Below, piece by piece: positions 14,787 to 63,852 of a stretch of 64,000 nucleotides of DNA; positions within the stretch are counted from its first letter, which is position 1; each line of letters opens with the position of its first letter. The notes under the pieces were generated by a model that worked only from the letters and a program-made list of their open reading frames with translations, was not told where the DNA came from and searched no databases. Made by a program: the position numbers and the translations under genes. Origin of the DNA: Sphingobacterium sp. UBA2700 (GTDB lineage Bacteria; Bacteroidota; Bacteroidia; Sphingobacteriales; Sphingobacteriaceae); the NCBI GenBank assembly GCA_002354335.1, contig DELI01000007.1, positions 72,590 through 136,589 on the forward strand. Reading direction: 5' to 3'.

Positions 14787-14837
14787 ATGTTTGGTTATTC
14801 ATTGTACGAGAATCTGACGGCTCTTGTTTTGGTTAGT

Positions 14838-14910
14838 CCCCTTTCAAAGCCCTTTCAAACCCAATGTATAACCCTTTCATAACCGCTCGGAAAGGGCTAA
14901 GCATTGGGTG
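14838..14910 (+). repeat. Dispersed intergenic hairpin repeat, copy A
   Basis: Two CCCTTTC direct repeats, then a nested hairpin: CCCAATG (14860-14866), CCCTTTC (14872-14878), GAAAGGG (14890-14896), CATTGGG (14902-14908). It shares CCCAATGTATA and ACCGCTCG.AAAGGGCT with the copy at 37228 and, inverted, with the copy at 63506. It lies between the zinc-ribbon gene and the AraC-type regulator, in a 400-base gap that is largely made of repeats. Confidence 0.75.
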
Positions 14911-14958
14911 TGGAAGGAGAGAGGATGGGGATTTAGACCTTTGATATTAGAACGTGTC

Positions 14959-14997
14959 TTGAACCAGGATAGGAAGGATTTAAGGGTTGGCAGTATC
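14959..14997 (+). repeat. GAACCAGG element, single copy
   Basis: TTGAACCAGGATAGGAAGGA followed by TTTAAGGGTTGGCAGTATC. It matches, with few changes, the units repeated in both orientations at 63621-63852. Confidence 0.7.
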
Positions 14998-15040: not shown

Positions 15041-15080
15041 TCTAAAATCTAACGTCTAAAATCTCATATCTAATATCTAA
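15041..15080 (-). repeat. TTAGAT-type element after a stop codon
   Basis: Read on the minus strand, TTAGATATTAGATATGAGA and TTTTAGACGTTAGATTTTAG follow the TAA of the AraC-type gene directly. The same words follow the stop codon of the gene ending at 63414. It is a short-period degenerate repeat of TTAGA(T/C) words. Confidence 0.65.
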
Positions 15081-16175
15081 TTATGGAATCTTCTTTGTTT
15101 TTTTGATTACTTTTTCCCTATAATCGTGGGGGCTGCATTTCTTTTCGATCTTGAAATGCCTGTAGAAGGAAGCTCGTGAATTGAAACCACATTGAAAGGC
15201 CAGTTCGTCGATAGCGATATTCAGCACCTCTTTTTCCAATTCCAGACAAGCCGCGTCGATTCGTAGAATATTGATGGCTTGTATAAATCCGAATCCAAAT
15301 AAGCTTTTGAATAATAGATTAATCTGTTGCTGCGTTAATTTGAGATCTTTTTTTATTTTCTCGACGTTGAAGGCAGCGGCTAGATAGGGGTGAGTTGCGA
15401 GATATTGCAAGATTTTCTCTTGGTCGTTGCTGTGGGGGAGGTTTGTTTTAATCCCGATGGAGGGAATCGCTTGCTGAATATGATTAATCCTGCTGATCAA
15501 GCTGCTGTCGGAACTGAGATGACGATTCAGGAGGTTGAAGAAATAGTTGTGTATGATTATCATGACGATCAACATGATCAGGTAGACGAAGTTGCTGGAT
15601 GCGCCATAGGTTTTAGACAGCGAAGATCCGTTGTAGGACAGGGCATAGGGTATTTCGAAGGAAGCCAACAGCAGCATCATCATGGTAAAGAAGAAGTACT
15701 TTTTTTGATTCGGATTATTCTCTCTCACCTTCGAGGTTGCTTTAAACAAAAGGACGGTGGGATAGAGAAGCCAACTGATGCCAAAGGAGATGTATAAGAT
15801 TTTTAGATAAGCTATGCCGTATAGGTTTCTGAATTCTTCGGAAACAAGAAAGATAATATAGACGCTTAGAAATAAGAAAAAGGGCAGAAGATTGTAGAAA
15901 AGGGTCTGTTTCGAGAATTTGTCGTGATCCATAGAAACAAATAACTGGAAAAGTAAAGGGCCGTAAATCAGGCCGACCGGCGCGCCCAGATCGACATACC
16001 TTAATTGGGGTATAATTTCTCTGAAGATGCCCCCATAAATCGCATGAAGTCCAACAAGGCAGTTGAAAATAAGAATGACTTCGTCGAATTTTGTTTTTAA
16101 GGGGAGTCGTTTGTAGTAGCGTAAATTAATACAGCTAAAAACGACGATAACCGTAAATAAGATTAAACTGAACAT
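15081..16175 (-). CDS. Membrane-anchored AraC-family transcriptional regulator
   Basis: A 364-residue protein starting at the ATG at 16175 (MFSLILFTVIVVFSCIN); an in-frame TTG at 16232 is possible but would put polar residues before the first membrane segment. About residues 1-215 hold six to seven hydrophobic segments. The last 95 residues are an AraC-type double helix-turn-helix, with ELAFQCGFNSRASFYRHFKI as its second helix pair. Such proteins sense a signal at the membrane and bind DNA directly. It is divergent from the susC-susD pair at 16594-21437 and is the obvious candidate regulator of it. Confidence 0.88.
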   Translation of the reverse strand: MFSLILFTVIVVFSCINLRYYKRLPLKTKFDEVILIFNCLVGLHAIYGGIFREIIPQLRYVDLGAPVGLIYGPLLFQLFVSMDHDKFSKQTLFYNLLPFFLFLSVYIIFLVSEEFRNLYGIAYLKILYISFGISWLLYPTVLLFKATSKVRENNPNQKKYFFFTMMMLLLASFEIPYALSYNGSSLSKTYGASSNFVYLIMLIVMIIIHNYFFNLLNRHLSSDSSLISRINHIQQAIPSIGIKTNLPHSNDQEKILQYLATHPYLAAAFNVEKIKKDLKLTQQQINLLFKSLFGFGFIQAINILRIDAACLELEKEVLNIAIDELAFQCGFNSRASFYRHFKIEKKCSPHDYREKVIKKTKKIP

Positions 16176-27937: not shown

Positions 27938-29077
27938 ATGATTATAACCGCAATCAGAATAGCTAAATTATTGGTCAAAAAGTATCGTAACGAACTTACG
28001 GACCAAGATCGAATGGAATTAGAGAGATGGTATTCAGCCCATCCTACGAATAAGCCGTTCGAAGATACACTTATGTCCAACGATGTCGACCAAAAGGAGC
28101 TTGCATGGTTGGATTCTATAGATAGTGAAGCTGCTTGGAAGAAAGCCGAGAAACGGCACCCTAGAAGAAAGAAAATTATCTATTGGGGTACCGCAGCGGC
28201 AATTCTTGCTATTACTAGTTTTGGCTATTTGGCATTAAAAGAAAGATCTACTCTCGAAACGATGCAACAAGATGTCATTGCTTCGGTGATCGAAGAAGAT
28301 ATTAATCCAGCGTTGCTTGGCGCGAAGATCATTCTTGCGAATGGAGAACAAAAGCAGGTTGCTGAGAAATTAAGCTTATCGGAGAGTAGTAATCTTTTTA
28401 CTACGGAGAGCCAATCTCAGAATTTATCAGCGCGTTCCGTTGTTACCATGTTGAATACGTTGGTCGTTCCTATGGCGAATCATTTTCAACTAACTCTTTC
28501 CGATGGAACGTCCATTTGGGTTAATGCTAATAGCGAGTTAAAATTTCCTACAAAATTCAGCGAGAGTGAAAGAAAGGTCTACTTGAAAGGAGAGGCTTAT
28601 TTCGAGGTTGCCAAAGATGCAAAAAAACCGTTCTATGTAGTGACAGAAAATGGGACAGTGAAAGTTCTGGGAACACACTTTAATGTCTCAGCCTATGGAA
28701 ATACTTCCAAAACAACCCTTTCCGAAGGTTTGGTAGAGGTTTCTAAATCAGGAAATAGAGAGATCATCAAGCCCGGTGAGAAGGCCGAAATAAGAGGGGA
28801 TGAGATACAAGTTAAGAAAGCTAATCTTCAAAAAGATCTAGCTTGGAAAAACAATGAATTTTATTTCAACAAAGATAACATCGTAGATATTGCAACCCAG
28901 TTAAAGATGTGGTATGATTTAGATGTGTCCTTAGGATCTGATGTATCACTTACAGAAACTTATTCAGGAGAGATCAAGAGAGATTCTAAGTTATCGGAGG
29001 TAATAAATATGTTGGAATTCGTCAGCGACTTAAAATTTGCACTGAACAAAAATAAATTATTGATAACCAAAAAATAG
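27938..29077 (+). CDS. FecR-family anti-sigma factor
   Basis: A 379-residue protein from the ATG at 27938 (MIITAIRIAKLLVKKYRNEL); an in-frame TTG at 27914 is less likely. The N-terminal cytoplasmic helical part (about 1-75) would bind the sigma factor. A single membrane span follows (IIYWGTAAAILAITSFGYLA, about 82-101), then the periplasmic FecR domain (about 180-280, LTLSDGTSIWVNANSELKFP, KGEAYFEVAKDAKKPFYV, LGTHFNVSAYG) and a C-terminal DUF4974-type segment (WKNNEFYFNKDNIVDIATQL). It relays the state of the STN-bearing SusC to the sigma factor. Confidence 0.93.
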   Translation: MIITAIRIAKLLVKKYRNELTDQDRMELERWYSAHPTNKPFEDTLMSNDVDQKELAWLDSIDSEAAWKKAEKRHPRRKKIIYWGTAAAILAITSFGYLALKERSTLETMQQDVIASVIEEDINPALLGAKIILANGEQKQVAEKLSLSESSNLFTTESQSQNLSARSVVTMLNTLVVPMANHFQLTLSDGTSIWVNANSELKFPTKFSESERKVYLKGEAYFEVAKDAKKPFYVVTENGTVKVLGTHFNVSAYGNTSKTTLSEGLVEVSKSGNREIIKPGEKAEIRGDEIQVKKANLQKDLAWKNNEFYFNKDNIVDIATQLKMWYDLDVSLGSDVSLTETYSGEIKRDSKLSEVINMLEFVSDLKFALNKNKLLITKK

Positions 29078-29120
29078 ATTATGGAAATAAAAATTTACAC
29101 AAACCAATAGCAATAAAAAA

Positions 29121-29150
29121 ACAGGAGTGTTGCAGCACTCCTGTAAGTTT
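29121..29150 (+). terminator. Hairpin between fecR and susC
   Basis: ACAGGAGTG/CACTCCTGT (29121-29129, 29136-29144), loop TTGCAG, then AAGTTTTAT. The T tract is weak. It could end the sigma/anti-sigma message or attenuate read-through into susC. Confidence 0.6.
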
Positions 29151-29204
29151 TATCAAGTTAAAAAACAAATAGTAACCTAATTCATTAACTCAATTATCAA
29201 ATGT

Positions 29205-32200
29205 ATGAATAACATTTCATTTGGCAAAAGGGCTCGAAACCTCTATGGTTCCCCTTTTGGCATAATTATCCGAATTATGAAAATTACAACATTTCTCTTG
29301 TTGGTTTTTATGTCTTGTGCTTATGCCGATGGAATTGCACAAAACGTTTCCTTGCGTCTTAAAGATGCAAAACTAGAGGATGCTTTTCTTTCTATATCAA
29401 AGCAAACGAAATATAAGTTTCTATATAGCGACGATGTTTTAAGGCATGCACCTAATGTAAATCTTAATGTTAATAACGCTCCATTAAGGGACGTATTGGC
29501 GCAACTATTGAATGATGATAGCTTTTCATTTAAGATTATTGCAAATACCATCTCTGTAAATTACAAGCCATCAACAAAAGTACTCGCGACTACTGTAAAC
29601 GCTGTTCAACATCAAGTAAGTGGAACGGTGAAAGGATCAGATGGAAAGGCGCTTTCAAATGCTTCTGTTCAAGTAAAAGGCGGTGCTGCAGGAACGTCGA
29701 CCAGCGACAATGGATCGTATAGTCTTAACGCACCAGCGAACGCTACGTTAGTCGTTCGTTATGTGGGGTATAAGACTAGAGAAATTGCAGTGGATGGTCG
29801 CTCGACGATTCACATCGTGTTAGAATCCTCAGAACAAGCTATTGACGAAGTAAACGTTGTTGCAACAGGATACCAAAACTTAGATCGTAAGCTATTTACC
29901 GGTGCTACAACTCGTGTTAATGCAAAAGATGCTGAAAGAAACGGGGTGCCAGATATCTCTAGAATGCTAGAAGGTCAAGTGGCAGGTGTTGCCGTTCAAA
30001 ACGTGTCAGGTACTTTTGGAGCTGCTCCGAAAATCCGTGTGCGTGGTGCGACCTCCCTGTCTGGAGAAAATAAACCTCTTTGGGTAGTAGACGGTATTAT
30101 CTTAGAAGATCTTGTGAATATCTCAAATGAAGCCTTATCAACAGGGGATGCTAATACCTTAATCGGTTCATCGGTGGCAGGATTAAACCCTGATGATATC
30201 GAATCTTTTACCATCCTAAAAGATGCTGCTGCAACAGCGATGTACGGTGCAAGAGCCATGAATGGAGTTATCGTCGTGACGACTAAAAAGGGTAGAAATA
30301 CAGATGGTAAACCAAATGTAAACTATTCCGGTAACTTTACAACTTACTTGAAACCAAATTACGACCAATTCGACATTATGAATTCTGCTGAACAGATGTC
30401 GATTCTGTTAGAGCTAGATAATAAAGGATATTTCAATCACTCTAGTGTTTCACGAAGTTCAAGTGGTGGTATTTTCGCTAAGATGTACAACAAAATGTAC
30501 GAGTATGATGAGTCGAACGGAACGTTTGGTTTAGAGAATACTACAGAAGCAAAGCTCGGTTTCCTTGAGCGTTATGCGAAGGCGAATACTGACTGGTTCG
30601 ACGTACTTTTCAAAAACTCGTTATTGCAAGACCACTCCGTAAGTATAACTTCAGGATCTGCAAAATCGCAAACATACTTATCAACAAGTTTTGTACATGA
30701 CTCTGGACAAACCCTAGGTGATAATGTTAAGCGATATACAGCGAACTTCAGAAACAATATGCGTTTCAGCGAGAAATTCAGCGCTGAAATCTTGGTTAAT
30801 GGATCCATCCGTGATCAACGTGCTCCAGGAACGCTGACGAGGACTTCAGACCCTGTTTATGGAAAGTATTCGAGAGATTTTGATATCAACCCATATTCAT
30901 ATGCATTAAACACAAGCCGTTTAATTACGCCTTATGATGAATTTGGAAACCTTGAATACAACACCATTAACTACGCTCCATTTAATATCTTAAGTGAGCT
31001 TGACAACAACTATTTAAATCTGAACAATATGGATTTAAAAGTTCAAGGGGGCTTGCGTTATAAAATTATTCCGCAATTAACAGCTTCTGTTGATGCAGCT
31101 TATCGCTATGCAACAACAGAAAGACAACACTATATCAAGGAAGAATCAAATATGGCAAACGCGTTCAGAGCCGCTGGCGATGCTACAATTGCTGACGGTA
31201 ACAAATATCTGTACAACGATCCTGATTTACCAAATTCACTTCCTCAGGTTATTCTTCCTGAAGGTGGTTTCTTCAATTCTAACATGAATAACCTGAAAAA
31301 CTTTTATTTCAGATCGAACTTAGAATTTGATGAGACATTCAAGCAACATCACCGTCTGAATCTATTTGGATCATTCGAGATCAGACATACAGATCGCCAG
31401 AATTCCGAATATGAAGGTGTAGGATACCAATATGCTAACGGAGGACTAGTGAATCCAAACTATAGGTTCTTCAAAAAGATGATCGAAGCAGGTGATCCAT
31501 ATTTTGGTATGGGTTATGAGTACGACCGTTTCGTTGCAGGTATGTTCCGCGCAGCATACGCTTATAAAGATAAATACAGTATCAATGCCACCACACGTAT
31601 TGACGGATCGAATAAACTAGGCGAATCTAAAGTTGCTCGTTGGTTGCCTACCTGGAATGTTTCAGGTAAATGGAATATTGACCAAGAAGATTTCTTCAAC
31701 GAAGATAATGGTATCTTATCAGCTGTCGGAGTTCGTGCGACTTATGGTTTAGTTGCAAGTCTGGGGAGTGCCACAAACTCTGCTCCTGTATTCTATAACC
31801 GTATCTCTTACCGTCCTTACGAAGATGAGAAAGAAGCAATTACATTCATTAGCGGTCTGGAGAACTCAGAACTTACATGGGAGAAATTATACGAGTTAAA
31901 TATCGGAGCCGACTTACAGTTATTCAATAAAATCGATGTAACTGCTGATTGGTATAAACGTGATATTTTCGACTTAATCGGTACGATCAGAACATCCGGT
32001 ATCGGTGGACAGTATAACAAGCAAGCCAACTATGCGGATATGAAAGCTTCTGGTTTTGAATTAACGTTAGCGGGATTTCCTATTCGAAGAGAAAGCGGAT
32101 TTACTTGGAGAACTCAATTCAACTTTGGTATCAACAAAAATGAAGTAACGAAGTTAGATGTTAACCAAAACATTTGGACGCTTGTACGTGCCGAAGGTGC

Positions 32201-32906
32201 CGCGGTATTAAACCACGCGCAGAGAGGCCTGTTTTCAGCAAAATTCGATGGCCTAGACCCGAATTATGGTTTCCCTACTTTTATCGGAACAGAAGGAATT
32301 AAAGATACTTATATCAACCCTCAAAGTGAAGACATCGATTATTTAACGTACCATGGCCCGGTTGACCCAACATTTACAGGAGGTTTCTATAATAACTTCA
32401 GATATAAGAACTTTGGTTTAACGGCTTTATTCACATTCTCTACAGGGAACTACATTCGTTTACAACCAACTTATGAAGCGTCTTATAACGATCTAACAGC
32501 AATTAGTAAAGACATGGTAAATCGTTGGTTAATACCTGGTGACGAGCAGCTTACTAATATACCGTCTTTGTTGGATGCACATTCAATGAATTATAACGTG
32601 TTACGTCCGAATGGATCAGCTGTATCAGCGGTGTACCCTTATAACATGTACAACTATTCTGACCAACGTGTTGCGAAAGGTGATTTTATTAGATTGAAAC
32701 AAGTACAATTGTCTTATACCCTTCCTCAGAGCATCGCGAACAGATTAAGAATGACAACAGCGCAAGTTTCGTTGGTAGGAAACAACATCGCCTTGCTTTA
32801 TTCTGATAAGAAGCTTAATGGAGCAGATCCAGAATTCTTTAATAACGGTGGTGTAGCAATGCCAGTTCCAAGACAATACACGCTTTCACTAAAAGTTGGA
32901 TTTTAA
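29205..32906 (+). CDS. SusC-family receptor with N-terminal STN signalling domain
   Basis: A 1233-residue TonB-dependent transducer. The N-terminus is extended before the signal segment (MKITTFLLLVFMSCAYADG, from residue 25; an ATG at 29277 is the alternative start). The STN/secretin-like domain (about 45-125: VSLRLKDAKLEDAFLSISKQ, YKFLYSDDVL) contacts FecR. A carboxypeptidase-regulatory-like domain (about 137-210, SGTVKGSDGKALSNASVQVK), TonB-box region VVATGYQNLDRK, plug (VRGATSLSGENKPLWVVDGI; ILKDAAATAMYGARAMNG) and barrel follow. Together with the upstream fecI/fecR it forms a substrate-sensing uptake system. Confidence 0.95.
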   Translation: MNNISFGKRARNLYGSPFGIIIRIMKITTFLLLVFMSCAYADGIAQNVSLRLKDAKLEDAFLSISKQTKYKFLYSDDVLRHAPNVNLNVNNAPLRDVLAQLLNDDSFSFKIIANTISVNYKPSTKVLATTVNAVQHQVSGTVKGSDGKALSNASVQVKGGAAGTSTSDNGSYSLNAPANATLVVRYVGYKTREIAVDGRSTIHIVLESSEQAIDEVNVVATGYQNLDRKLFTGATTRVNAKDAERNGVPDISRMLEGQVAGVAVQNVSGTFGAAPKIRVRGATSLSGENKPLWVVDGIILEDLVNISNEALSTGDANTLIGSSVAGLNPDDIESFTILKDAAATAMYGARAMNGVIVVTTKKGRNTDGKPNVNYSGNFTTYLKPNYDQFDIMNSAEQMSILLELDNKGYFNHSSVSRSSSGGIFAKMYNKMYEYDESNGTFGLENTTEAKLGFLERYAKANTDWFDVLFKNSLLQDHSVSITSGSAKSQTYLSTSFVHDSGQTLGDNVKRYTANFRNNMRFSEKFSAEILVNGSIRDQRAPGTLTRTSDPVYGKYSRDFDINPYSYALNTSRLITPYDEFGNLEYNTINYAPFNILSELDNNYLNLNNMDLKVQGGLRYKIIPQLTASVDAAYRYATTERQHYIKEESNMANAFRAAGDATIADGNKYLYNDPDLPNSLPQVILPEGGFFNSNMNNLKNFYFRSNLEFDETFKQHHRLNLFGSFEIRHTDRQNSEYEGVGYQYANGGLVNPNYRFFKKMIEAGDPYFGMGYEYDRFVAGMFRAAYAYKDKYSINATTRIDGSNKLGESKVARWLPTWNVSGKWNIDQEDFFNEDNGILSAVGVRATYGLVASLGSATNSAPVFYNRISYRPYEDEKEAITFISGLENSELTWEKLYELNIGADLQLFNKIDVTADWYKRDIFDLIGTIRTSGIGGQYNKQANYADMKASGFELTLAGFPIRRESGFTWRTQFNFGINKNEVTKLDVNQNIWTLVRAEGAAVLNHAQRGLFSAKFDGLDPNYGFPTFIGTEGIKDTYINPQSEDIDYLTYHGPVDPTFTGGFYNNFRYKNFGLTALFTFSTGNYIRLQPTYEASYNDLTAISKDMVNRWLIPGDEQLTNIPSLLDAHSMNYNVLRPNGSAVSAVYPYNMYNYSDQRVAKGDFIRLKQVQLSYTLPQSIANRLRMTTAQVSLVGNNIALLYSDKKLNGADPEFFNNGGVAMPVPRQYTLSLKVGF

Positions 32907-32918
32907 TACCTGATAACA

Positions 32919-34397
32919 ATGAAAATTTATAAATATATTCTATTAAGTTTCCTCGGGGTTGGTTCACTAACTTCTTGTGAAAAATATTTAGATCATGCCC
33001 CTGATATGCGAACTAAGATCGATAATGTCGAAAAAGTAGCGCAGTTGGTAGGCTCTGCATATCCGAGATATAACTATCTAGCGATGGCAGAATCATATTC
33101 TGATAATGTCATCGACAAGGGGGCAGCGATTGGTCATATTGATGATCCTTATGTTTCCTTTTACATGTGGGAAGATGTCGAGGGCAGTGGAAACAATACC
33201 CCAACACAATATTGGAATGGCGTATATGAAGGGATAGCAGCTGCAAACCAAGCTTTGGAGGCAATTGCAGACAATAATTTCGGAGCGGAAGCAAACGCGT
33301 ACAAAGGCGAAGCCTTAGTGGCGAGAGCTTATGGGCATTTTATGCTTTCAATTTTCTTCGCGCAACCTTATAATATTGCCGGTGATAATTCTTCCCCGGG
33401 TATTCCGTATGTCGATGCGCCCGAAAAAGTCGCTTTAAAATCCTATGATAGAGAAACGGTAAAGGATACCTACGACAAAATCAGAAAAGATCTTGAAGAA
33501 GGTCTTCCATTATTGCAAGGCGGTAAATGGAAAGTTCCAAAATACCATTTTACATCTGCTGCAGCCAACGCTTTCGCAGCCCGCTTTTATATGTTTACGG
33601 GCGAATGGGATAAGGCAATTGCTGCTGCAAATAATGTGTTCCCTGGCGGAGACTATGCTGGAAAAATTAGACCGATCACAACGACAATTCAGAATTATAG
33701 CCTAGCGCAGCAATTGATTGAGTTGACCAAAGCAGATAAAGATTATAATCTCTTATTGCGGGAGACTTACTCAGTTTATCAAAGAACTAACTCGTCTATT
33801 TATTCGAGATTCGGTTATGGGCAGCGAAAATATAATGAGATGTTCAACACACCTGTATTTACAGGAACAACTATGCATTCGAGAGGGATTAGTTATAACT
33901 CTGGGCAGCATTACTCGGTGTATATGTACAATGAATATTTCTACTACACGAACGTACAAGCTGGAATCGGCTATCCTTATATTATGCAACCCTTGCTTAC
34001 TGCAGATGAAGCATTAATCAATCGCGCGGAAGCGTATGTGCAAAAAGGCGATTTTGGAAAAGCATTAGCAGACATTAACCAATTTTTAAGCACAAGAGTT
34101 CAAAACTTTGCTATCGGTACGCATGGATTGACCGTGGAGAAAGCTACCAGTTTTTATGGAATAGACGATCCGAAAAAAGCAATAACTGAGGCGATTTTGA
34201 GAATCAAGCAAAGAGCATTTATGTCAGAAGGTGTTCGTTGGATGGATATCGTTAGACATAAACTTCCGGTAACTCATGTAGTAATTGCTCCTGATGACAC
34301 CGAATCTGAAATTGTTCTTGAACCAAATGATTTAAGAAGAGTATTCCAAATTCCTAGTGAAGCACAATTAGCTGGTGTTGAACTTAACCCAAGGTAA
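32919..34397 (+). CDS. SusD/RagB-family lipoprotein
   Basis: A 492-residue lipoprotein with lipobox SLTSC (Cys20), followed by EKYLDHAPDMRTKIDNVEK. ANAYKGEALVARAYGHFMLS and the C-terminal RRVFQIPSEAQLAG fit the SusD family, although the PLLTADEALINRAEAYVQKG helix is somewhat divergent. It lies 12 bases after susC and eight before the metallohydrolase ATG, so it belongs to the same transcript. Confidence 0.92.
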   Translation: MKIYKYILLSFLGVGSLTSCEKYLDHAPDMRTKIDNVEKVAQLVGSAYPRYNYLAMAESYSDNVIDKGAAIGHIDDPYVSFYMWEDVEGSGNNTPTQYWNGVYEGIAAANQALEAIADNNFGAEANAYKGEALVARAYGHFMLSIFFAQPYNIAGDNSSPGIPYVDAPEKVALKSYDRETVKDTYDKIRKDLEEGLPLLQGGKWKVPKYHFTSAAANAFAARFYMFTGEWDKAIAAANNVFPGGDYAGKIRPITTTIQNYSLAQQLIELTKADKDYNLLLRETYSVYQRTNSSIYSRFGYGQRKYNEMFNTPVFTGTTMHSRGISYNSGQHYSVYMYNEYFYYTNVQAGIGYPYIMQPLLTADEALINRAEAYVQKGDFGKALADINQFLSTRVQNFAIGTHGLTVEKATSFYGIDDPKKAITEAILRIKQRAFMSEGVRWMDIVRHKLPVTHVVIAPDDTESEIVLEPNDLRRVFQIPSEAQLAGVELNPR

Positions 34398-34404
34398 AAA
34401 AGTT

Positions 34405-35787
34405 ATGAAAAGATTATTCAACTGCATATTAGCACTAACCTTAGGGTTAGGAATATCATCTTGTAGTAAGGATGAAAACTTAGATGTCGATTTAACTAAA
34501 TATAACTATGACACATTTGAGAAACTTCCAATAGATGATTATATAAATACCAACTTAACGGTTCCTTATAACATTGAAGTGGTATACCGTTTTGACAGAA
34601 GTCAAACTGATATCAATAAAAACATATCGCCTCCGAAAATCGAACAAGTTCAACCGGCTGTTGATATGGTGATAAACGGCTTCTTAAAAGTATTTGAAAA
34701 GGTCGCAGGCCCAACGTTTATTAAAACTTACACGCCTAAACAATTTGTATTGTTTGGTTCGCACGCTTATAACTCCAATGGGTCGGTGACATTAGGAACC
34801 GCAGATGGTGGACGCAGAGTTGTACTTTATGATATCAATAATGTCAATCCTAACAGTCCGACTGATATTAAGCGTCGCTTAAGAACGATTCATCATGAAT
34901 TTACGCACATCGTCAATCAAATCGTTGCAATTCCTCCTTCTTTTAGAGAGGTTACGACAGACCATGTTGCGGACTGGACCGCCGCTGCAAATACGGACGC
35001 GGAGGCTTTGCGCCTAGGATTTATTTCTCAATATTCGAGAAGTAATTTTGGTGAAGATTTCGCAGAAACCGTAGCCCATCTTTTAATCGAAGGTCAAGCG
35101 TACTATAATCAACGTATTGCAGCCTCTTCTGAGGATGGTGCAAAGAAGCTAAGAGCAAAGCAAACCATCGTTGAAGACTACTACAAACAGTTCTTTGATA
35201 TTGATTTTAAAGAATTACAGTACGAAGTTTACTTGATGTTAAACCAGACTTATGGTGACCAAAGTCAGGCGTTTTTGACGAACTTGAAGAACAACCGTGT
35301 TGCTTCAATTAACTTCAACTTGGATTCAGGAACTGAATACACCTTGTACGGTAAATCGGTAGCATTTGACGCCGTTTGGAAAGAAGTTAAAGCGAAATTA
35401 CCTACGATTTCAAACAACGCAGGTCGTCAGGCGGTATCTTTCAACTTAGTTTTCTTAAATGAAAACAAAGTTCAATTGCAGGCTGGGTATAAAAATGCTG
35501 CAGGATCTAATCTTGCGGCATGGTATGATTTCACGATGACATACAATACTGATGGCACAATCAAACTCAAATATGTAGATGAAGGGCTGACTGATACAGG
35601 ATATGGAAATGGCCGAATTGTAATCGAAGGTTGGAGGGCGTTAATTACGTATTTAGAAACAAATACGTTCAGACCTGATTGGGTGTCTCCAACGATTGTA
35701 GGTTATAATAACTCCATGAAATTCGCTGGATTCTATGTTGCTGGCGATGAAACAAATTATTTATATGGTCCAGTTACCTTAAAATAA
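34405..35787 (+). CDS. Substrate-import-associated zinc metallohydrolase lipoprotein
   Basis: A 460-residue lipoprotein from the ATG at 34405 (MKRLFNCILALTLGLGISSC; Cys20 acylated). The zincin motif HEFTH is at residues 164-168 (RTIHHEFTHIVNQIVAIPPS), and a likely third ligand region follows with FAETVAHLL. This matches the family of HExxH lipoproteins encoded beside SusC/SusD and DUF4302 genes in Bacteroidota. It probably acts at the cell surface on the imported substrate, most likely a peptide or protein, but no activity is established. An in-frame upstream start overlapping susD at 34375 is less likely because it would bury the signal peptide. Confidence 0.9.
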   Translation: MKRLFNCILALTLGLGISSCSKDENLDVDLTKYNYDTFEKLPIDDYINTNLTVPYNIEVVYRFDRSQTDINKNISPPKIEQVQPAVDMVINGFLKVFEKVAGPTFIKTYTPKQFVLFGSHAYNSNGSVTLGTADGGRRVVLYDINNVNPNSPTDIKRRLRTIHHEFTHIVNQIVAIPPSFREVTTDHVADWTAAANTDAEALRLGFISQYSRSNFGEDFAETVAHLLIEGQAYYNQRIAASSEDGAKKLRAKQTIVEDYYKQFFDIDFKELQYEVYLMLNQTYGDQSQAFLTNLKNNRVASINFNLDSGTEYTLYGKSVAFDAVWKEVKAKLPTISNNAGRQAVSFNLVFLNENKVQLQAGYKNAAGSNLAAWYDFTMTYNTDGTIKLKYVDEGLTDTGYGNGRIVIEGWRALITYLETNTFRPDWVSPTIVGYNNSMKFAGFYVAGDETNYLYGPVTLK

Positions 35788-35793
35788 GAAAAA

Positions 35794-37113
35794 ATGAAAA
35801 AGATATTAATATATATAGTTGGCCTTTTCTTATTAGCTGGTTGTGAAGAAGAAAAGGTAGATCTTACGTTCGGCGAAAAGCCCGAAGAACGCATGAGCGA
35901 GCGCTTGAATGAGCTTCGTGGAATGTTAACCTCAGCGGAAAATGGATGGAAAGCACATCTAACAACAGGTGCTAAAGGGGGGTATGGATTCTATTTTGAT
36001 TTTGAAGATGCGAAAAATGTAAAAATGCTTAGCGATCTTACCGCTGCAACTTCTACATCTGCGAATACATCAACATATCGTGTAATTTGGGCAATGAATG
36101 CATCTTTAGTTTTTGATACGTTCAATTATTTAACGATGCTTCAGGAACCTTCTGGAAATTACGGAGGAACAGCACCGAACGGATATCAAAGTGATATTGA
36201 ATTTGAATACGTGAAAAACTCTGGCGATTCTATCTACATGCGCGGGAAGAGGTATAAGCAACCCCTGATATTAACTAAAGCAACCGCGGCGGAAAAGGTT
36301 GCTTACAACGATGGATCTTATAAGACATCTATAGATAAAACAACTGCTGTTTACCAATCTTATAGCAACCCTTATATCGAAGTGGATCTTGCCGGCGTTA
36401 AAACAAGAATTGCATTGACTTTGTCAAACACATCAAAGACAATTGATTTCGGATCTGTTGATGCTAGTAATAAAGCGATCATTAATACGTCTAAATTTGC
36501 ATTCAATCTAACAGGCTTCGATATTTTAAGTGGCGGATTGCATAGAGATGTATTATTTACTAGAGGAGAAGTTGAGGGCAATAATCTCTCTGTTTATGAC
36601 TCCAACGGTACGAAATATCCTGTAATGAGCACTAATATGCCAATCTTGCCGATTGATGTTATGTTCAATTATTCAGGTGCTTTCAACGGAATGGCAATCA
36701 ATGGTTTAACTTTGCCTCCGGGAATCAATTCTAGCTTTAATGCTACTTGGACAGCGCTTACAAATTTCCATGCTTCGAATAATATGAGAACCGTGTCGCT
36801 TACATTTAAATTGACCAGTGCCCGCGTTGCAACTTTGGATGTTCGTTTCACAAATGGCTCAACGGTTTATTCTGCGGCTGCAGACTATAACTATACTTTG
36901 GTGGATGGAACACTAACCCTAACCAGCCCAATCTCTACAAATGGAAACTGGAATAATGGATGGGTATCATTGGCAGTGAGAAATTATTTTGACAAAGGAG
37001 TCTTTAAATTGACTTATTTGACTAGCTCGGATCCTAACGCAGGAACTATCGGCGGATTAATCAAGTCTAATGACGAGACAGCGATCTTCTACGGAAAGTT
37101 AGGAAGATACTAA
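35794..37113 (+). CDS. DUF4302 lipoprotein
   Basis: A 439-residue lipoprotein (lipobox LLAGC, Cys17). The mature start EEEKVDLTFGEKPEERMSER and LTSAENGWKAHLTTGAKGGY match DUF4302 proteins, found together with the zinc metallohydrolase lipoprotein and SusCD. The rest is beta-rich. It starts six bases after the previous stop and ends the operon before a terminator. Its function is unknown; a surface substrate-binding role is plausible. Confidence 0.88.
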   Translation: MKKILIYIVGLFLLAGCEEEKVDLTFGEKPEERMSERLNELRGMLTSAENGWKAHLTTGAKGGYGFYFDFEDAKNVKMLSDLTAATSTSANTSTYRVIWAMNASLVFDTFNYLTMLQEPSGNYGGTAPNGYQSDIEFEYVKNSGDSIYMRGKRYKQPLILTKATAAEKVAYNDGSYKTSIDKTTAVYQSYSNPYIEVDLAGVKTRIALTLSNTSKTIDFGSVDASNKAIINTSKFAFNLTGFDILSGGLHRDVLFTRGEVEGNNLSVYDSNGTKYPVMSTNMPILPIDVMFNYSGAFNGMAINGLTLPPGINSSFNATWTALTNFHASNNMRTVSLTFKLTSARVATLDVRFTNGSTVYSAAADYNYTLVDGTLTLTSPISTNGNWNNGWVSLAVRNYFDKGVFKLTYLTSSDPNAGTIGGLIKSNDETAIFYGKLGRY

Positions 37114-37158
37114 AAACAAAGTAATCGAATTAACATTCCCTAATCATTCATAAAAAAA

Positions 37159-37184
37159 GAAAGGCTGCCTATTGGCAGCCTTTC
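37159..37184. terminator. Terminator after the DUF4302 gene
   Basis: Perfect 11-bp stem GAAAGGCTGCC/GGCAGCCTTTC with loop TATT. On the plus strand the T tract is short (TTTCCTATT); on the minus strand the stem is followed by a run of seven Ts, so it may also stop antisense transcripts. Confidence 0.7.
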
Positions 37185-37227
37185 CTATTATCATTCCTCC
37201 CGACCTCAACCCTTCTTTAACTTAAAA

Positions 37228-37297
37228 CCCTTTCACTCCCCTTTCACTCCCAATGTATAGCCCAATCACAACCGCTCGCAAAGGGCTTTGATATGGG
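37228..37297 (+). repeat. Dispersed intergenic hairpin repeat, copy B
   Basis: Two CCCTTTCACTCC-type direct repeats, then CCCAATGTATAGCCC, ACAACCGCTCGCAAAGGGCT and ATATGGG. It has the same order of elements as copy A at 14838, including CCCAATGTATA and ACCGCTCG.AAAGGGCT, but with weaker outer pairing. It lies between a terminator and the next gene. Confidence 0.7.
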
Positions 37298-37380
37298 TCT
37301 GAAAAGCTTATAATAAACGACATCCTCGAATCATTCCTCAAAAAGATTCGCTATCTTCAAGTAATAGCCAATCCGAAACC

Positions 37381-37662
37381 ATGAAAGATTATAAACTACT
37401 GCTCGCTTATGGCTCCTTTCTGCTCAATGTCGCATATTTTGGCTCTTGGGTATATTGCTCATCCATGCATGAAACCATGGTCGATGCGGTGGTAGCCTTC
37501 GAAAAAGTGCCAATCTTTGTACATTTTTATTGGGATGTTATTTTCTTTATCGCAACGATCCTCGCTATCATTGTTTTCGCTAGGCGAAAGGGTATCCTCA
37601 GTAAGGCCGCTCTGATCCTGCAGATTCTCTTTGCAAGCGGATACCTGTGGACACATATGTAA
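37381..37662 (+). CDS. Small integral membrane protein of unknown function
   Basis: A 93-residue protein with three hydrophobic segments (about 5-25 LLLAYGSFLLNVAYFGSWVY, 45-65 IFVHFYWDVIFFIATILAII, 72-90 LSKAALILQILFASGYLW). I do not recognise a family. It stands alone between repeat copy B and the LacI regulator gene. The ATG at 37381 is the only start that keeps all membrane segments. Confidence 0.65.
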   Translation: MKDYKLLLAYGSFLLNVAYFGSWVYCSSMHETMVDAVVAFEKVPIFVHFYWDVIFFIATILAIIVFARRKGILSKAALILQILFASGYLWTHM

Positions 37663-37733
37663 ACAGCAGGAGATAAGCGTTCTTCGTGGAATCAATCCCT
37701 TAAAATACTTTAGCAGTAGATGTGCAAATTTGC

Positions 37734-37810
37734 TATATTAGCACACAATCTTTATGAATAGAATCGCTGTAAAAACATCACCTCTATCCGTGAAAGATTG
37801 TGCTAGTATA
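37734..37810. promoter_or_regulatory. Large inverted repeat in the lacI-type gene leader
   Basis: TATATTAGCACACAATCTTT (37734-37753) is the inverse of AAAGATTGTGCTAGTATA (37793-37810), with one extra dinucleotide and one mismatch, around a 39-base spacer. It ends 14 bases before the LacI-type ATG. Either two inverted operator copies for autoregulation or a 5'UTR hairpin would explain it. Confidence 0.55.
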
Positions 37811-37824
37811 AGATAGACGCTGTT

Positions 37825-38835
37825 ATGGCAAAGATTGATATTATCCAATTGGCAAAAGTGCTGAACTTGTCGAAGTCCACGGTTTCTCGTGCGTTTCGGG
37901 ACAGTAGTGATATCAATCCGAAGACGAAGGAGCGTATCTTGAAGGTTGCGAAGGAACTCAATTACCAACCGAATCATTATGCGAGCAATCTGCGCGAACA
38001 AAAGAGCAAGACCATTGCCATTGTTCTGCCAGAACTAGCCAACAACTACTTTACTCAGATTATTCAGGGCGCCGAGAAGGAAGCTAAAAAACACGGATAT
38101 CATATCTTGATCTTTGTTACCGATGATGATATCGCAAAAGAACGCGATTTCATCCGTAGTCTTGCGAGTGGGCGTGTGGATGGCGTCATTATGTCGGCAT
38201 CGGGCGAGTCGACGGATCACAGTTATTTGGAGAGCATCAATTACGAGCATCTTCCGATTGTGTTATTCGACCGTATCTATGATGATATAGATTTGCCAAA
38301 AATTGTTACAGACGATTACCATAGTAGCTTTATGGCAACGGAGCATCTTATCCAGAATGGCTGTCAGCGTATTGCTTATCTGGTTATCAATAAGGAATTA
38401 TCGATTGGTAAGACCCGTATGCAGGGCTATGAAGATGCGCTGAAGAAATATAAGATTCCATTACGGAAGCGCTTGATTATTGACTGTTCAAATTCTTATG
38501 AGGAAAACAGTGAGATTATTGAGACAGCTATTCGCAAGCAAGCACCAGACGGGATCCTTGCTTCGGTAGAGCGTTTAGCATTTTCAACCTACTATGTGTG
38601 TCGACGCATGGGCATACAAATTCCGCAAGACCTCAAGGTCGTATCCTTTTCTAGCCTGGAAATAGCAGGGCTGTTGCATCCTCCGCTATCTGTTGTGCGC
38701 CAACCGGCAGTGCTAATCGGGGAGAAGGCTGCCGCAACCTTATTGAAGCAGCTTTCAGGAGAATCATTAGCCGAAGAGGAAAAGTTTGTAATGATGCGTT
38801 CGGATTTAGTTGTCCGAAATTCTTCACAAGCTTAA
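37825..38835 (+). CDS. LacI-family transcriptional regulator (maltodextrin locus)
   Basis: A 336-residue regulator. The N-terminal helix-turn-helix (residues about 4-25, IIQLAKVLNLSKSTVSRAFR) and hinge helix (YQPNHYASNLR) are followed by a periplasmic-binding-protein-like effector domain (about 60-330, KTIAIVLPELANNYFTQIIQ; DGVIMSASGE). Its gene is tail to tail with the MFS transporter gene, one base between stops. In Bacteroidota such regulators sit beside maltose MFS/GH65/GH13/susCD genes, so a maltose-responsive role is likely but not shown. Confidence 0.93.
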   Translation: MAKIDIIQLAKVLNLSKSTVSRAFRDSSDINPKTKERILKVAKELNYQPNHYASNLREQKSKTIAIVLPELANNYFTQIIQGAEKEAKKHGYHILIFVTDDDIAKERDFIRSLASGRVDGVIMSASGESTDHSYLESINYEHLPIVLFDRIYDDIDLPKIVTDDYHSSFMATEHLIQNGCQRIAYLVINKELSIGKTRMQGYEDALKKYKIPLRKRLIIDCSNSYEENSEIIETAIRKQAPDGILASVERLAFSTYYVCRRMGIQIPQDLKVVSFSSLEIAGLLHPPLSVVRQPAVLIGEKAAATLLKQLSGESLAEEEKFVMMRSDLVVRNSSQA

Positions 38836-38836
38836 A

Positions 38837-40177
38837 CTAGTCTGCCTTGACGGTCATCGTCGAGGCTGCCGCAAGAAGCATAAAAACTCCCGCCATCGTT
38901 AAACAATACACCGCCTGATGTTGAAATACATGCTTCACCAATACCGTACCGAGTACTCCATTGACCAATTGAGGCAAGGTGATAAAGAAATTGAATAAAC
39001 CCATATACAAGCCCATCTTCTTTGCGGGCACAACGCCCGATAGGATGGAATATGGCGTAGCCAAAATACTTGCCCAGGCAATGCCGACCGCAATCATTGG
39101 GATATACAATAAGTTGGGGTCTTGTATAAATAGAATCGATATAAGGCCAATACCTGAAACGCCTAAAGCCAGCATATGCGTTTTCTTTTTCCCTATAGCC
39201 TGATAGAGTTTGGGTAGGATAAGGGCGAATATCGTCGCCACCAAATTGTACACCCCGAACAGCACCCCGGTTAAATTTCCAGCATCGGCATACGCTGCGG
39301 ACGAGGTGTCCGACGTCGGCAGATGGTAAATATGTTGTGCAATGGCGGGCGTCGTGAATACCCACATGGAAAACAAGGCAAACCAAGAGAAGAACTGCAC
39401 TAAGCCTAGTTGCTTCATCGCTGTTGGCATATTCTTAAAGTCTTTAAAAATAGAGCCGAAGCTATGTGCATGCTGTTCCTCGTCATCAGCATGCTCGTCA
39501 AAGGAACGCAGTTCTTCTGCAGAGTATTCTTTCGTCGTGATGACTGTCCACAACAGGGAGAGTACCAATACGATGGCTCCGGCATAGAATGACCAGATAA
39601 CATTGTCGGGCACATGTCCCTGTTCTGCGATTTTTGATACGCCGAGATATTCGGAAAGCACATAAGGCAAAAAAGACCCTATAATGGCACCGGCTCCGAT
39701 TAAGAAGGTCTGCACCGCATAGCCATAGCCATGTTGTTCTTTGGGCAGGTTGTCAGCAACTAAAGCGCGGAACGGCTCCATCGAAACGTTAAAAGCAACA
39801 TCCATGATCATTAGCATTCCGGCGCCGATAAGTAAGGGCGGGATCAGTAGGGTCAGGACGGAAGCATTGGGCATCAGGGCAAGGGCTGCCGCTGCCACCA
39901 GCGCTCCGCCTAGAAAAAAAGGTCTGCGTCTTCCCAATCTGGTCCAGGTCTTATCCGAGAAATAACCTATAATCGGCTGAATGAGCATTCCTGAAAGGGG
40001 GGCAACTAACCAAAAAAGCGATAAATGTTCCACATCGGCACCGAAGGTTTGTAGTATGCGGGAGGCGTTTCCTGTCTGCAGGGCAAAGCCAAATTGTATA
40101 CCGAAAAACCCAAAGCTCATGTTGAAAATTTGAGCACGGGTAAGCCTAGGCTTTGATCGTTTTGAAGTCTGTTGCAT
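38837..40177 (-). CDS. SLC45/GPH-type MFS sugar transporter, probably for maltose or maltodextrins
   Basis: A 446-residue protein with 12 expected membrane segments. The loop motif SDKTWTRLGRRRPFFLGG (about 74-91) is characteristic of the SLC45/GPH disaccharide symporters, and MSFGFFGIQFGFALQTGNAS is the typical first helix of the bacterial maltose branch. It would move maltose or short maltodextrins across the inner membrane by cation symport. It is the last gene of a minus-strand unit with two esterases and an alcohol dehydrogenase (27 bases from the preceding stop). Confidence 0.88.
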   Translation of the reverse strand: MQQTSKRSKPRLTRAQIFNMSFGFFGIQFGFALQTGNASRILQTFGADVEHLSLFWLVAPLSGMLIQPIIGYFSDKTWTRLGRRRPFFLGGALVAAAALALMPNASVLTLLIPPLLIGAGMLMIMDVAFNVSMEPFRALVADNLPKEQHGYGYAVQTFLIGAGAIIGSFLPYVLSEYLGVSKIAEQGHVPDNVIWSFYAGAIVLVLSLLWTVITTKEYSAEELRSFDEHADDEEQHAHSFGSIFKDFKNMPTAMKQLGLVQFFSWFALFSMWVFTTPAIAQHIYHLPTSDTSSAAYADAGNLTGVLFGVYNLVATIFALILPKLYQAIGKKKTHMLALGVSGIGLISILFIQDPNLLYIPMIAVGIAWASILATPYSILSGVVPAKKMGLYMGLFNFFITLPQLVNGVLGTVLVKHVFQHQAVYCLTMAGVFMLLAAASTMTVKAD

Positions 40178-40203
40178 GTGTAGTTTCGTTTATTGATTGG
40201 TTT

Positions 40204-40998
40204 CTAGAAACGTAAATTAAAAAATAATATCGTTTTCATAATATTATTTTTCCAATAGTCCCAGCTATGCCCACCTTCAAACTCTTCATAATCGTGGGGA
40301 ATATTGGCTTCTAATAGCTTAGAGTGAAGTTTTTGGTTGTATGCAAGGAGTAGATCATCTTTTCCACAATCGAATCTGAAGTAAGGCAATCGTTCTTTGT
40401 TAGCTATTAAACTATCTATCAAGGATAGTTCTGTATCCATTTGGTAACTGTCGAGATTTTCTTCTACGAGATGTGCAAACTCAGCAATGCTGGTAATGGA
40501 CGAAAGGCCTGCGAACGAAGTGAAAACATCCGGATGTCGAGCGCCAATTCTCATGGCGCCATAGCCGCCCATAGAAAGCCCTGCAATAAAGAATTTGGAA
40601 GCCTGACTGATCTGATCTGGGGCTAGCTGTCGGGCAACTGCGATGACATCCTCCACAATCCACTTTTCAAAATCCTGCTTCTGATGTTTTACATAGCCGG
40701 AACCGTCACCCCAAAGCCCGTCAGAGGGCATCACAAGAATCAGTGGCTTGATTATGCCCTCTTTTATTGCTTGATCGACCTGCTTATGAACGCCCGACGA
40801 TAGCGGCCAGCTCCAGGCACTTCCATAAACACCATGCAACAAAATCACTACCGGGACATCCATAGGGCAATTTTCTGGTATATAGATGCAAATATCGCCA
40901 CGTGACCCCAACTGTGGCGACTTAATGGTTACAAAGTGTAAATTCCGGATACCGTAATTGGGATTAGATTGCTCTATGGATCTGAATGTTTCTTTCAT
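40204..40998 (-). CDS. Alpha/beta-hydrolase esterase (esterase D/CE1-like)
   Basis: A 264-residue hydrolase without signal peptide, hence cytoplasmic. VVILLHGVYGSAWSWPLS contains the oxyanion HG, GLSMGG carries nucleophile Ser142, and DCGKDD and GGHSWDYW supply the likely Asp and His. The fold resembles esterase D, S-formylglutathione hydrolase and carbohydrate esterase family 1. It lies six bases after the dehydrogenase gene and 26 before the MFS gene. Deacylation of an imported sugar ester is the natural guess. Confidence 0.85.
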   Translation of the reverse strand: MKETFRSIEQSNPNYGIRNLHFVTIKSPQLGSRGDICIYIPENCPMDVPVVILLHGVYGSAWSWPLSSGVHKQVDQAIKEGIIKPLILVMPSDGLWGDGSGYVKHQKQDFEKWIVEDVIAVARQLAPDQISQASKFFIAGLSMGGYGAMRIGARHPDVFTSFAGLSSITSIAEFAHLVEENLDSYQMDTELSLIDSLIANKERLPYFRFDCGKDDLLLAYNQKLHSKLLEANIPHDYEEFEGGHSWDYWKNNIMKTILFFNLRF

Positions 40999-41004
40999 AA
41001 ATGA

Positions 41005-43244: not shown

Positions 43245-43365
43245 TGCTGTTTATAATGGTTATACTAAGTTGTTAGTTTTCAATAAGTACTCGTCGTACA
43301 ATTTTAATCGAAATATGGCTTATTTTGGAAATTTCACTTAACTTGATGGATAGAAAGTCCAATAT

Positions 43366-44211: not shown

Positions 44212-44217
44212 GAAGGC

Positions 44218-45801: not shown

Positions 45802-45821
45802 TTACTTTTCTCCTTCAGCTT

Positions 45822-63414: not shown

Positions 63415-63443
63415 ACATTAGATTTTAGATATGAGATATTAGA
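63412..63443 (+). repeat. TTAGAT-type element overlapping a stop codon
   Basis: TAGACATTAGATTTTAGATA followed by TGAGATATTAGA. It starts with the stop codon of the monooxygenase gene and matches, in the same sense relative to the gene, the element after the AraC-type gene at 15041-15080. Confidence 0.65.
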
Positions 63444-63505
63444 GCGAAGTCGGCTAAGTATAATTAGGCAGACTGCGTTGTAAGATAAGTCTACATAAAC
63501 TAAAT

Positions 63506-63590
63506 CACACCCAATACTAACCCCTATCAAAGCCCTTTCGAAGCGGCTATGATAGGGGGTTGTATTGGGTTTACATTGGGTTTGAAAGGG
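63506..63590 (-). repeat. Dispersed intergenic hairpin repeat, copy C (inverted)
   Basis: On the minus strand this reads CCCTTTCAAACCCAATGTA, then CCGCTTCGAAAGGGCT, like copies A and B. Pairing is near perfect: ACCCAATAC/GTATTGGGT (63509-63517, 63562-63570) and AACCCCTATCA/TGATAGGGGGTT (63519-63529, 63550-63561, one extra G), giving a stem of over 20 pairs. Confidence 0.75.
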
Positions 63591-63620
63591 AATTAAGCAG
63601 TATTTGGTAGGGTGTGTTGT

Positions 63621-63852
63621 TTTGAACCAGGCAAGGAAGGATGCAAGGATTGTCAGGATCGGGTGGAAATGAAAGATGAAAGGATTGGCAGGATGTCTGG
63701 TCTTTGAACCAGGAAAGGAAGGATGCAAGAATTGGCTGGATCAAGGTCATCCTTTTATCCTTCCTTTCCTGGTTCAGACAAAATAGAAATTTAAGGATTT
63801 AAGGATTGGTAGGATCCTGTTCATCCTAAAATCCTTTCTTTCCTGGTTCAAA
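63621..63852. repeat. Cluster of GAACCAGG elements in both orientations
   Basis: Forward units TTTGAACCAGGCAAGGAAGG (from 63621) and TTTGAACCAGGAAAGGAAGG (from 63703), reverse units TCCTTCCTTTCCTGGTTC (ending 63775) and ATCCTTTCTTTCCTGGTTCA (ending 63850), and partial AAGGATTGGCAGGAT-type tails at 63680 and 63800. The spacing is irregular. No open frame here looks coding. Confidence 0.75.

What the first reader, a model, noticed from the sequence alone, without database searches (positions are those of the whole stretch)
14838..14910. A three-copy family of intergenic hairpin repeats (14838, 37228, 63506)
Three gaps carry a 70-85 base element with the same order of parts: CCCTTTC direct repeats, CCCAATGTA, a central ACCGCTCG-like loop region, AAAGGGCT, and a final ATTGGG or ATGGG. 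Two copies point one way and one the other. In copies A and C the arms vary in sequence but still pair (GAAAGGG/CCCTTTC in A; TATC/GATA extensions in C), which looks like compensatory change preserving a hairpin. No transposase is nearby. It could be a REP/MITE-like element moved in trans, or a structured RNA or terminator element.
Basis: seen in the sequence. Interest (0 to 1): 0.7.

Follow-up and report, generated by a model that had tools for sequence, protein, structure and literature searches.

The report
Evenly spaced palindromes along a chromosome
The three hairpin repeats belong to a family of more than 130 short DNA elements that sit between genes at strikingly even steps of about 23,000 bases along a Sphingobacterium chromosome, which suggests that they organise the chromosome or repelled one another when they spread.

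Summary
The three copies belong to a family with at least 134 places in the nearest held genome, G001 (Sphingobacterium). The constrained element is about 176 bp: arrays of 11-bp units (CCCTTTCAAA, CCCAATACAAA and others) leading into an imperfect palindrome, with A/T-versus-G/C columns phased at 11 bp beyond the arms. Arms are matched copy by copy: swapping arms weakens folding (G001 z -7.8, G045 z -6.5, control -0.6), but not in S. humi (z +0.6).

The unexpected result is spacing. Of 134 gaps none is under 10 kb (35 expected); the peak is 20-25 kb. In 800 kb scanned completely, the smallest of 31 gaps is 15.0 kb; in 20,000 random intergenic placements it never exceeded 7.1 kb. G045 agrees; a sparse relative, G101, also lacks close pairs.

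Sites are shared with G045 (12 of 12 testable), partly with S. humi and G101. The family is patchy: 5 of 93 genus genomes. No RAYT-type transposase was detected.

Best reading: a protein-bound or bent double-stranded DNA site that organises the chromosome (0.40). Main rival: a fossil mobile element with long-range transposition immunity (0.32). Neither is shown.

The parts
14791..14967 (+). Copy A, full constrained element (positions -92 to +84 around core C at 14883, bounds taken from the family profile); R1 match 14819-14948; palindrome roughly 14850-14917
37180..37356 (+). Copy B, full constrained element (core C at 37272, bounds from the family profile); R1 match 37207-37332; hairpin weak in this copy
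63462..63638 (-). Copy C, full constrained element (core C at 63546, bounds from the family profile); R1 match 63489-63609; strong hairpin

Best explanation
The element is a cis-acting double-stranded DNA site of about 16 helical turns. A multimeric DNA-binding or DNA-bending protein, or the intrinsic bend of the phased tracts, acts on one face of the helix, and the palindrome lets the site sit at, or extrude at, the tip of a supercoiled loop. Sites are kept between genes about 23 kb apart on the native chromosome and so divide it into loops or patches of that size. Shown: copy number, spacing, intergenic location, 11-bp phasing over about 176 bp, arm matching in two genomes, shared sites between species, species dialects, and near-absence from two long gaps that carry conjugative-element genes. 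Inferred: that a protein binds, that loops form, and that spacing is selected for function.
For: Spacing: 0 of 134 G001 gaps <10 kb, 35 expected, 20 the lowest of 10,000 simulations; in 800 contiguous kb 32 elements, smallest gap 14,990 bp, CV 0.33, against 20,000 random intergenic placements under each of two weightings with largest minimum 7,099 bp and lowest CV 0.50. Scans with R1 at E<=5 leave no credible hidden copy there (the one hit away from a copy, E 0.004, shows no element). G045: 1 of 132 listed gaps <10 kb, 33 expected. Three other repeat patterns in the first 400 kb have CV 0.87-1.36. DNA rather than RNA: A-or-T columns outside the hairpin are phased at 11 bp (left F 9.0, above all 500 nulls, other periods <=1.7; right F 3.2, above the 95% null 2.5 but not its maximum 3.5, other periods <=1.6), and column constraint ends near -92 and +84. 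Arms matched in G001 and G045. All gene contexts; no strand bias by GC-skew half, 19/17 and 47/45. Same site and orientation in G045: 12 of 12 testable, of 17. The 224- and 147-kb gaps hold one weak copy and carry conjugative-element genes.
Against: G101 carries only 29 listed copies with gaps up to 766 kb, hard to square with a need for a site every 23 kb. 88 of 93 genus genomes have no match. No cognate protein was found or sought systematically. At 6 S. humi sites shared with G001 orientation is mixed (3 same, 3 opposite), and at the site of window copy C it is opposite too. One S. humi element has no counterpart in G001. Retention in G045 is not exceptional: other repeats were retained 12/16, 13/16, 18/21, 2/12 and 1/1. 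Element identity (81%) is only a little above intergenic (75%) and below coding (85%). The ten strongest palindromes of another repeat family in the same 400 kb are also no closer than 22.9 kb, so even placement may not be unique, though in G045 that family has pairs 7.6 and 10.1 kb apart. No bend was computed or measured.
Confidence: 0.4

Rival explanations
1. A non-autonomous mobile element family that spread with long-range transposition (target) immunity, as in Mu, Tn7 or Tn3, until new copies could land only some 15-25 kb from old ones. The transposase is now lost or unrecognised, and the even spacing is a fossil of that repulsion.
For: Repulsion without full coverage in G101: 0 of 29 gaps <30 kb, 5.1 expected; P 0.0018 for a minimum gap as large as 31.9 kb. 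Patchy distribution. S. humi shares sites with mixed orientation and no sequence memory: orthologous-site identity 0.578 against 0.589 for all pairs, as for independent insertions. One S. humi site is empty in G001. A random-adsorption model with exclusion 20 kb matches the 20-25 kb peak (38.8 against 40 gaps). Mu cis-immunity is strongest near 5 kb and decays between 5 and 25 kb (PMC7350765, passages).
Against: No clear target-site duplication: the best boundary pair for 5- to 7-mers (-103/+90 and neighbours) has 4, 3 and 3 of 120 copies, among about 5,300 pairs tried. The two element-poor gaps with conjugative genes are hardly colonised. Sites and orientation fixed between G001 and G045. No single exclusion distance tried (10-20 kb) fits: 20 kb forbids the 25 gaps observed below 20 kb, and shorter ones give lower, earlier peaks; graded immunity was not modelled. 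A 176-bp helically phased site seems longer than a transposon end needs.
Confidence: 0.32
2. REP/REPIN-type element mobilised by a RAYT (Y1 HUH) transposase.
For: Intergenic, more than 100 copies, inverted arms with copy-specific pairing, as in REPINs (PMC3116915, passages).
Against: No Y1_Tnp at E<=0.1 in 5 of 5 carrier genomes, while the same search rings in 8 of 14 control genomes, 6 over the cut-off. REP doublets are reported as randomly distributed in extragenic space; these elements are strongly overdispersed.
Confidence: 0.07
3. A transcribed RNA structure: terminator, mRNA 3' stabiliser or small RNA.
For: Stable folds; convergent gaps somewhat enriched, 20 of 64 against 17 of 100 background gaps.
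Against: 12 of 64 lie between divergent genes; no T-run in the consensus (read); no wobble excess; no Rfam match at gathering score; phased A/T columns beyond the arms; even spacing has no evident RNA rationale.
Confidence: 0.08

Closest known systems
REP/REPIN elements with RAYT transposases
   Same: Short, intergenic, >100 copies, inverted arms able to form hairpins, patchy between species
   Different: No Y1 transposase detected in 5 carriers; about 176 bp with 11-bp unit arrays; overdispersed spacing, not random; a GTAG/CGTC tag was not scanned for
Transposons with target immunity (Mu, Tn7, Tn3) and their miniature derivatives
   Same: Mutual exclusion over kilobases would give minimum spacing; non-coding miniature elements are known (recalled)
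   Different: No clear target-site duplication, no sharp ends, no transposase identified, two element-poor gaps with conjugative genes hardly colonised
Dispersed chromosome-organising sites (parS, matS, Noc sites, gyrase-binding BIMEs; recalled)
   Same: Many dispersed protein-binding sites with a chromosomal role, palindromic in several cases
   Different: Those are 13-16 bp or confined to ori/ter domains (recalled); here a long phased site lies evenly around most of the chromosome
Plectoneme-pinning sequences (PMC6301789, abstract and outline)
   Same: Sequence-encoded curvature can fix the place of supercoiled loops; 11-bp phased tracts are candidates
   Different: Pinning and curvature were not tested here; the abstract places plectonemes upstream of promoters, not in an evenly spaced repeat family

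Membership tests
REP/REPIN | Cognate RAYT (Y1_Tnp) in the genome | tested here: not met
   0 of 5 carrier genomes at E<=0.1; 8 of 14 control genomes ring
REP/REPIN | Two inverted arms forming a hairpin, arms co-varying | tested here: met
   Arm swap worsens folding in G001 and G045 (z -7.8, -6.5) but not in 20 S. humi copies (z +0.6)
REP/REPIN | Random distribution in extragenic space | tested here: not met
   Minimum gap 14,990 bp against at most 7,099 in 20,000 intergenic placements
REP/REPIN | GTAG or CGTC tag at the foot of a short stem | not tested
   No scan was made
MITE or miniature transposon | Target-site duplication | tested here: not met
   Best 5-mer boundary pair 4 of 120 copies (0.4 expected) among about 5,300 pairs; ends are not sharp and orthologous copies are counted twice, so a TSD at ragged ends could be missed
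MITE or miniature transposon | Presence/absence polymorphism at otherwise syntenic sites | tested here: inconclusive
   G001-G045 12 of 12 shared; S. humi 1 site absent from G001, but that gap also differs by a gene
Target-immune transposon | Repulsion between copies over kilobases | tested here: met
   G001, G045, G101
Target-immune transposon | Transposase with AAA+ partner, or a Tn3-type transposase, acting on the element | not tested
Rho-independent terminator | G+C-rich hairpin followed by a U-run at gene ends | tested here: not met
   No T-run in the consensus (read); 12 of 64 between divergent genes
Chromosome-organising protein site | Bound in vivo by a nucleoid or segregation protein | not testable with these tools
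   Needs ChIP or pull-down
Rfam RNA family | Covariance-model match at gathering score | tested here: not met
   0 matches in the window and in 7 loci

The most novel reading that the evidence does not exclude
A chromosome ruler: a new class of about 176-bp, helically phased, palindromic DNA sites that nucleate a protein assembly or pin a supercoiled loop about every 23 kb on native chromosomal DNA, in species-specific dialects, while acquired conjugative DNA stays almost unmarked, so that host and foreign DNA become physically different.
Probability: 0.28. Interest if true: 0.93.

Novelty: new variant of a known kind. Interest (0 to 1): 0.8.

Why it matters
REP doublets, the best studied dispersed bacterial palindromes, are reported to lie at random between genes. 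An intergenic family with a minimum distance of 10-15 kb and a peak at 20-25 kb is unusual under either leading reading: a sequence-encoded unit of chromosome folding, or a natural, genome-wide record of transposition immunity near saturation. Both can be tested in a culturable Sphingobacterium by contact mapping and pull-down. Searches of the held library (listings) showed no description of such a family; most subscription journals are not in it.

Tried and rejected
Rejected or weak: (1) Spacing-pattern chains between G001 and G045 did not discriminate (89 of 135 G001 copies in chains against 73-82 in 5 shuffles; longest 14 against 9-12); replaced by sequence synteny. (2) The genome contigs exact pattern found nothing. 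(3) Looking for an unrelated even family in 200 kb of G005 gave only 3 unlike 11-nt arrays. (4) My first S. humi register was off by one (one search failed); between-species identities are taken only. The S. humi arm swap used the same register, so its split lies one base off within the loop. (5) Ranking of the G101 site-A copy was invalid (shift clipped); one search replaces it. (6) A single-frequency period-11 test on the outer arms was negative in G001 and G045, and positive only on the right in S. humi; the phase-resolved test, which allows two A/T positions per turn, was positive, more weakly on the right. (7) With G001 alone axis 13 is top (z 4.0) but axis 0 reaches 3.5, so the column-permutation test is weaker than arm-swap folding. 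(8) Fewer same-strand neighbours than expected in G001 (52 of 134) was not clearly repeated in G045 (60 of 132). (9) The checkpoint note says 18 elements in 3.0-3.4 Mb; one search lists 17, and 17 is used. (10) On checking, I had overstated the random-adsorption result against the immunity rival and the strength of the right-arm phasing; both are mended, and the odds moved from 0.42/0.30 to 0.40/0.32 (novel case 0.30 to 0.28).

Full report
OBSERVATION. The three copies are real. A sequence-only model (R1) of 30 G001 copies finds them at E 1.7e-27 to 1.7e-26 and nothing else in the window at E<=1, apart from their own reverse strands. Hairpins are clear in A and C, not in B. The window's assembly is not held; the nearest genome, G001 (one contig, 4,373,748 bp), shares 97% of sampled 31-mers. 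The window corresponds to about 111.7-175.7 kb of G001, where the same three copies lie at the same distances.

FAMILY. The core pattern with up to 2 mismatches has 62 matches in G001, against 6 for the reversed pattern. R1 gives 156 matches; the listed rows fall into 134 distinct places. Only 150 of 1240 first-look candidates were scored, so this is a lower bound. One further weak copy was found later. The first 30 copies align without any gap. In the middle of the element CC and GG tracts recur every 11 bp, with a core CCGCTC-N-GAAAGGGCT. A sequence-blind scan for 11-nt autocorrelation in 400 kb of G001 found 13 peaks, all 13 on family elements; other periods pick up other repeats, chiefly 7 and 14.

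SPACING. Of 134 gaps none is below 10 kb (35 expected; lowest of 10,000 simulations 20), and 41 lie at 20-25 kb. With the added weak copy, 104 gaps below 35 kb have mean 23.3 kb, sd 5.3 kb. I checked for hidden copies: 800 contiguous kb (3.0-3.8 Mb) were scanned with a weight matrix (32 elements) and with R1 at E<=5 (17 + 15 elements). The one hit away from a copy (L228, E 0.004) shows no element. Against random placement in the 188 intergenic gaps >=150 bp of that stretch, the observed minimum of 14,990 bp exceeds every one of 20,000 simulations under each of two weightings (largest 7,099), and CV 0.33 lies below all (lowest 0.50). By simple ORF calling 29 of 32 elements fall in those gaps. 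Three other repeat patterns in the first 400 kb have CV 0.87-1.36 and minimum gaps of 1.3-3.1 kb. However, the ten strongest copies of one of them (full palindromes) are at least 22.9 kb apart there, while in G045 pairs lie 7.6 and 10.1 kb apart. G045: 132 listed places, again from 150 scored candidates, 1 gap <10 kb (33 expected). G101: 29 copies, 0 gaps <30 kb (5.1 expected); P 0.0018 for so large a minimum gap. S. humi is a draft with 35 candidates scored, and its spacing was not tested formally.

ANATOMY. In 120 copies (86 G001, 34 G045, some of them orthologs) A/T-versus-G/C columns are constrained from about -92 to +84 and not outside (22-bp steps; the matrix that placed the copies covers only -66 to +67). 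Several outer columns accept A or T almost equally (for example -77, -66, -55, +43, +57, +68) and are phased at 11 bp, strongly on the left and less so on the right. That looks like indirect readout of a double helix rather than base pairing. Inside, complementarity is highest at two axes 11 apart. Arms match copy by copy: swapping arms between copies raises mean MFE from -36.0 to -32.6 in G001 and from -35.3 to -30.9 in G045 (0 of 30 permutations as low in either), while swapping only sequence beyond +40 does nothing (z -0.6). In 20 S. humi copies there was no effect (20 of 30 permutations as low). Of 64 copies 50 fit axis 13, 10 fit axis 2, 4 tie. Wobble-type mismatches are at expectation. 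Among 12 G001-G045 ortholog pairs, at axis 13, 6 base pairs changed on both sides with pairing kept, 70 were broken and 57 gained (sums), so ortholog data alone give little for compensation. Whole units can swap words between orthologs.

CONTEXT. By simple ORF calling 60 of 64 elements (45 G001, 19 G045) lie between genes and 4 overlap ORFs of 97-132 aa; flanks: 20 convergent, 12 divergent, 32 tandem, against 17/26/57 of 100 background gaps. There is no bias by GC-skew half: 19/17 and 47/45. Of 8 window proteins near the copies, six have ordinary Pfam matches (AraC-type, DUF4302, LacI, glycosyltransferase, MiaE, luciferase-like) and two none; no transposase. The 224- and 147-kb gaps hold one weak copy between them. 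Among the 20 ORFs tested there, both gaps have a TraG-type conjugation ATPase, one also a coupling protein, besides SusD, metal-transport and other genes. I infer conjugative islands; their borders were not mapped. The single element of G069 lies in DNA 97.9% identical over 1757 bp to the weak copy of the G001 gap, a likely lateral transfer.

COMPARISON BETWEEN SPECIES. G046 is inferred to be S. humi JCM 31225 and G005 Sphingobacterium sp. CZ-2, from equal contig lengths. G001-G045: 12 of 12 elements in syntenic DNA (5 of 17 not mappable) have an element at the same place and orientation, and the reverse holds for 12 of 12 (place only). Other repeats are also often retained (12/16, 13/16, 18/21, 2/12, 1/1), so retention alone proves little. 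S. humi: of 20 elements tested (of 35 listed), 6 have a G001 element at the matching place (166 and 176 by one flank only, 178 less exactly), 3 in the same and 3 in the opposite orientation; 1 has none; 13 could not be placed. G001 DNA held was mostly element-centred, which favours finding shared sites. Starting from the window without that bias: the gap after the gene beside copy C also holds an S. humi element, on the other strand (R1 scores 25.8 and 24.6 bits for the two strands; the C-rich arm is read on + by eye), and of 50 loci scanned (of 80 fetched) the other 49 have none at E<0.01. Site A is shared with G045 and G101; site B with G045 but not G101 (read against 27 and 67). Identity within species is about 0.70. 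Between G001 and S. humi it is 0.589 for all pairs and 0.578 for the shared sites (8 comparisons at 6 sites), so there is no memory of site; for 10 G001-G045 orthologs it is 0.795 against 0.720. Among 86 G001 copies the site-A copy is one of the two tied best matches of the G101 site-A element. Hence dialects, with older memory at some sites.

DISTRIBUTION. 5 of 93 Sphingobacterium genomes, G001 included, match at E<=1e-5 (G001, G045, G046, G101, and G069 with one place). 7 of 301 family genomes match at E<=1e-6; the two added have one hit each in other genera. Both searches used stricter filters, and strongly diverged dialects could be missed.

MECHANISM. Two readings fit most facts. Architectural site: explains 11-bp phasing over about 16 turns, lack of a clear target-site duplication, indifference to gene and replication direction, near-absence from the two gaps with conjugative genes, and fixity between G001 and G045. 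Immune mobile element: explains repulsion without coverage in G101, patchiness, dialects, and flipped orientation at shared S. humi sites. Mu immunity decays between 5 and 25 kb (PMC7350765, passages), and a 20-kb exclusion model reproduces the height of the 20-25 kb peak though not the 25 shorter gaps. I give 0.40 and 0.32. They may be joined: a domesticated element. REPIN and RNA readings are disfavoured. Curvature and plectoneme pinning were not computed; PMC6301789 was seen as abstract and outline only. PMC12306157, PMC2267715 and PMC3733652 were seen as passages and do not describe this family in what I saw. parS, matS, Noc and BIME comparisons are recalled.

Noticed in passing
window 14958-14997, 63617-63856: A second palindromic intergenic repeat (GAACCAGGAAAGGAAGGAT...ATCCTTCCTTTCCTGGTTC). 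In 400 kb of G001 11 of 21 clusters lie within 600 bp of an element and all clusters together are not even, yet its ten strongest palindromes are at least 22.9 kb apart; in G045 pairs lie 7.6 and 10.1 kb apart.
   Followed up: partly
window 15041-15081 and 63410-63443: Short TCTAATATCTAA-type repeats beside copies A and C; also found in other G001 and G045 gaps.
   Followed up: partly
L090:7825-9176, L087:7915-9266, L023:1671-3016, L071:2436-3787: A 1.35-kb insertion sequence with a Mutator-type transposase (PF00872), copies 98% alike, sits roughly 90-210 bp from the 5' side of four elements.
   Followed up: partly
window 28000-46999: 97% identical to G045 here but about 86% at window 6-24 kb, suggesting recent exchange between the species.
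   Followed up: no
L144:3770, L146:844, L150:16730 (G005); L152:78 (G101): Unrelated 11-nt arrays of other sequence in G005 (no family match) and in G101; two of the G005 arrays are also palindrome peaks.
   Followed up: partly
L229:364-515 (G001): One element place with R1 matches on both strands that each start at an outer end, as if it had two 5' arms; counted as one place.
   Followed up: no
G303:C26:4228-4322 and G131:C39:154442-154556: Single R1 matches in two other genera of the family (E 8e-9 and 7e-7); could mark further dialects.
   Followed up: no
window 37153-37190: A terminator-like hairpin lies just upstream of copy B (read by eye), so B is probably not that gene's terminator.
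   Followed up: no
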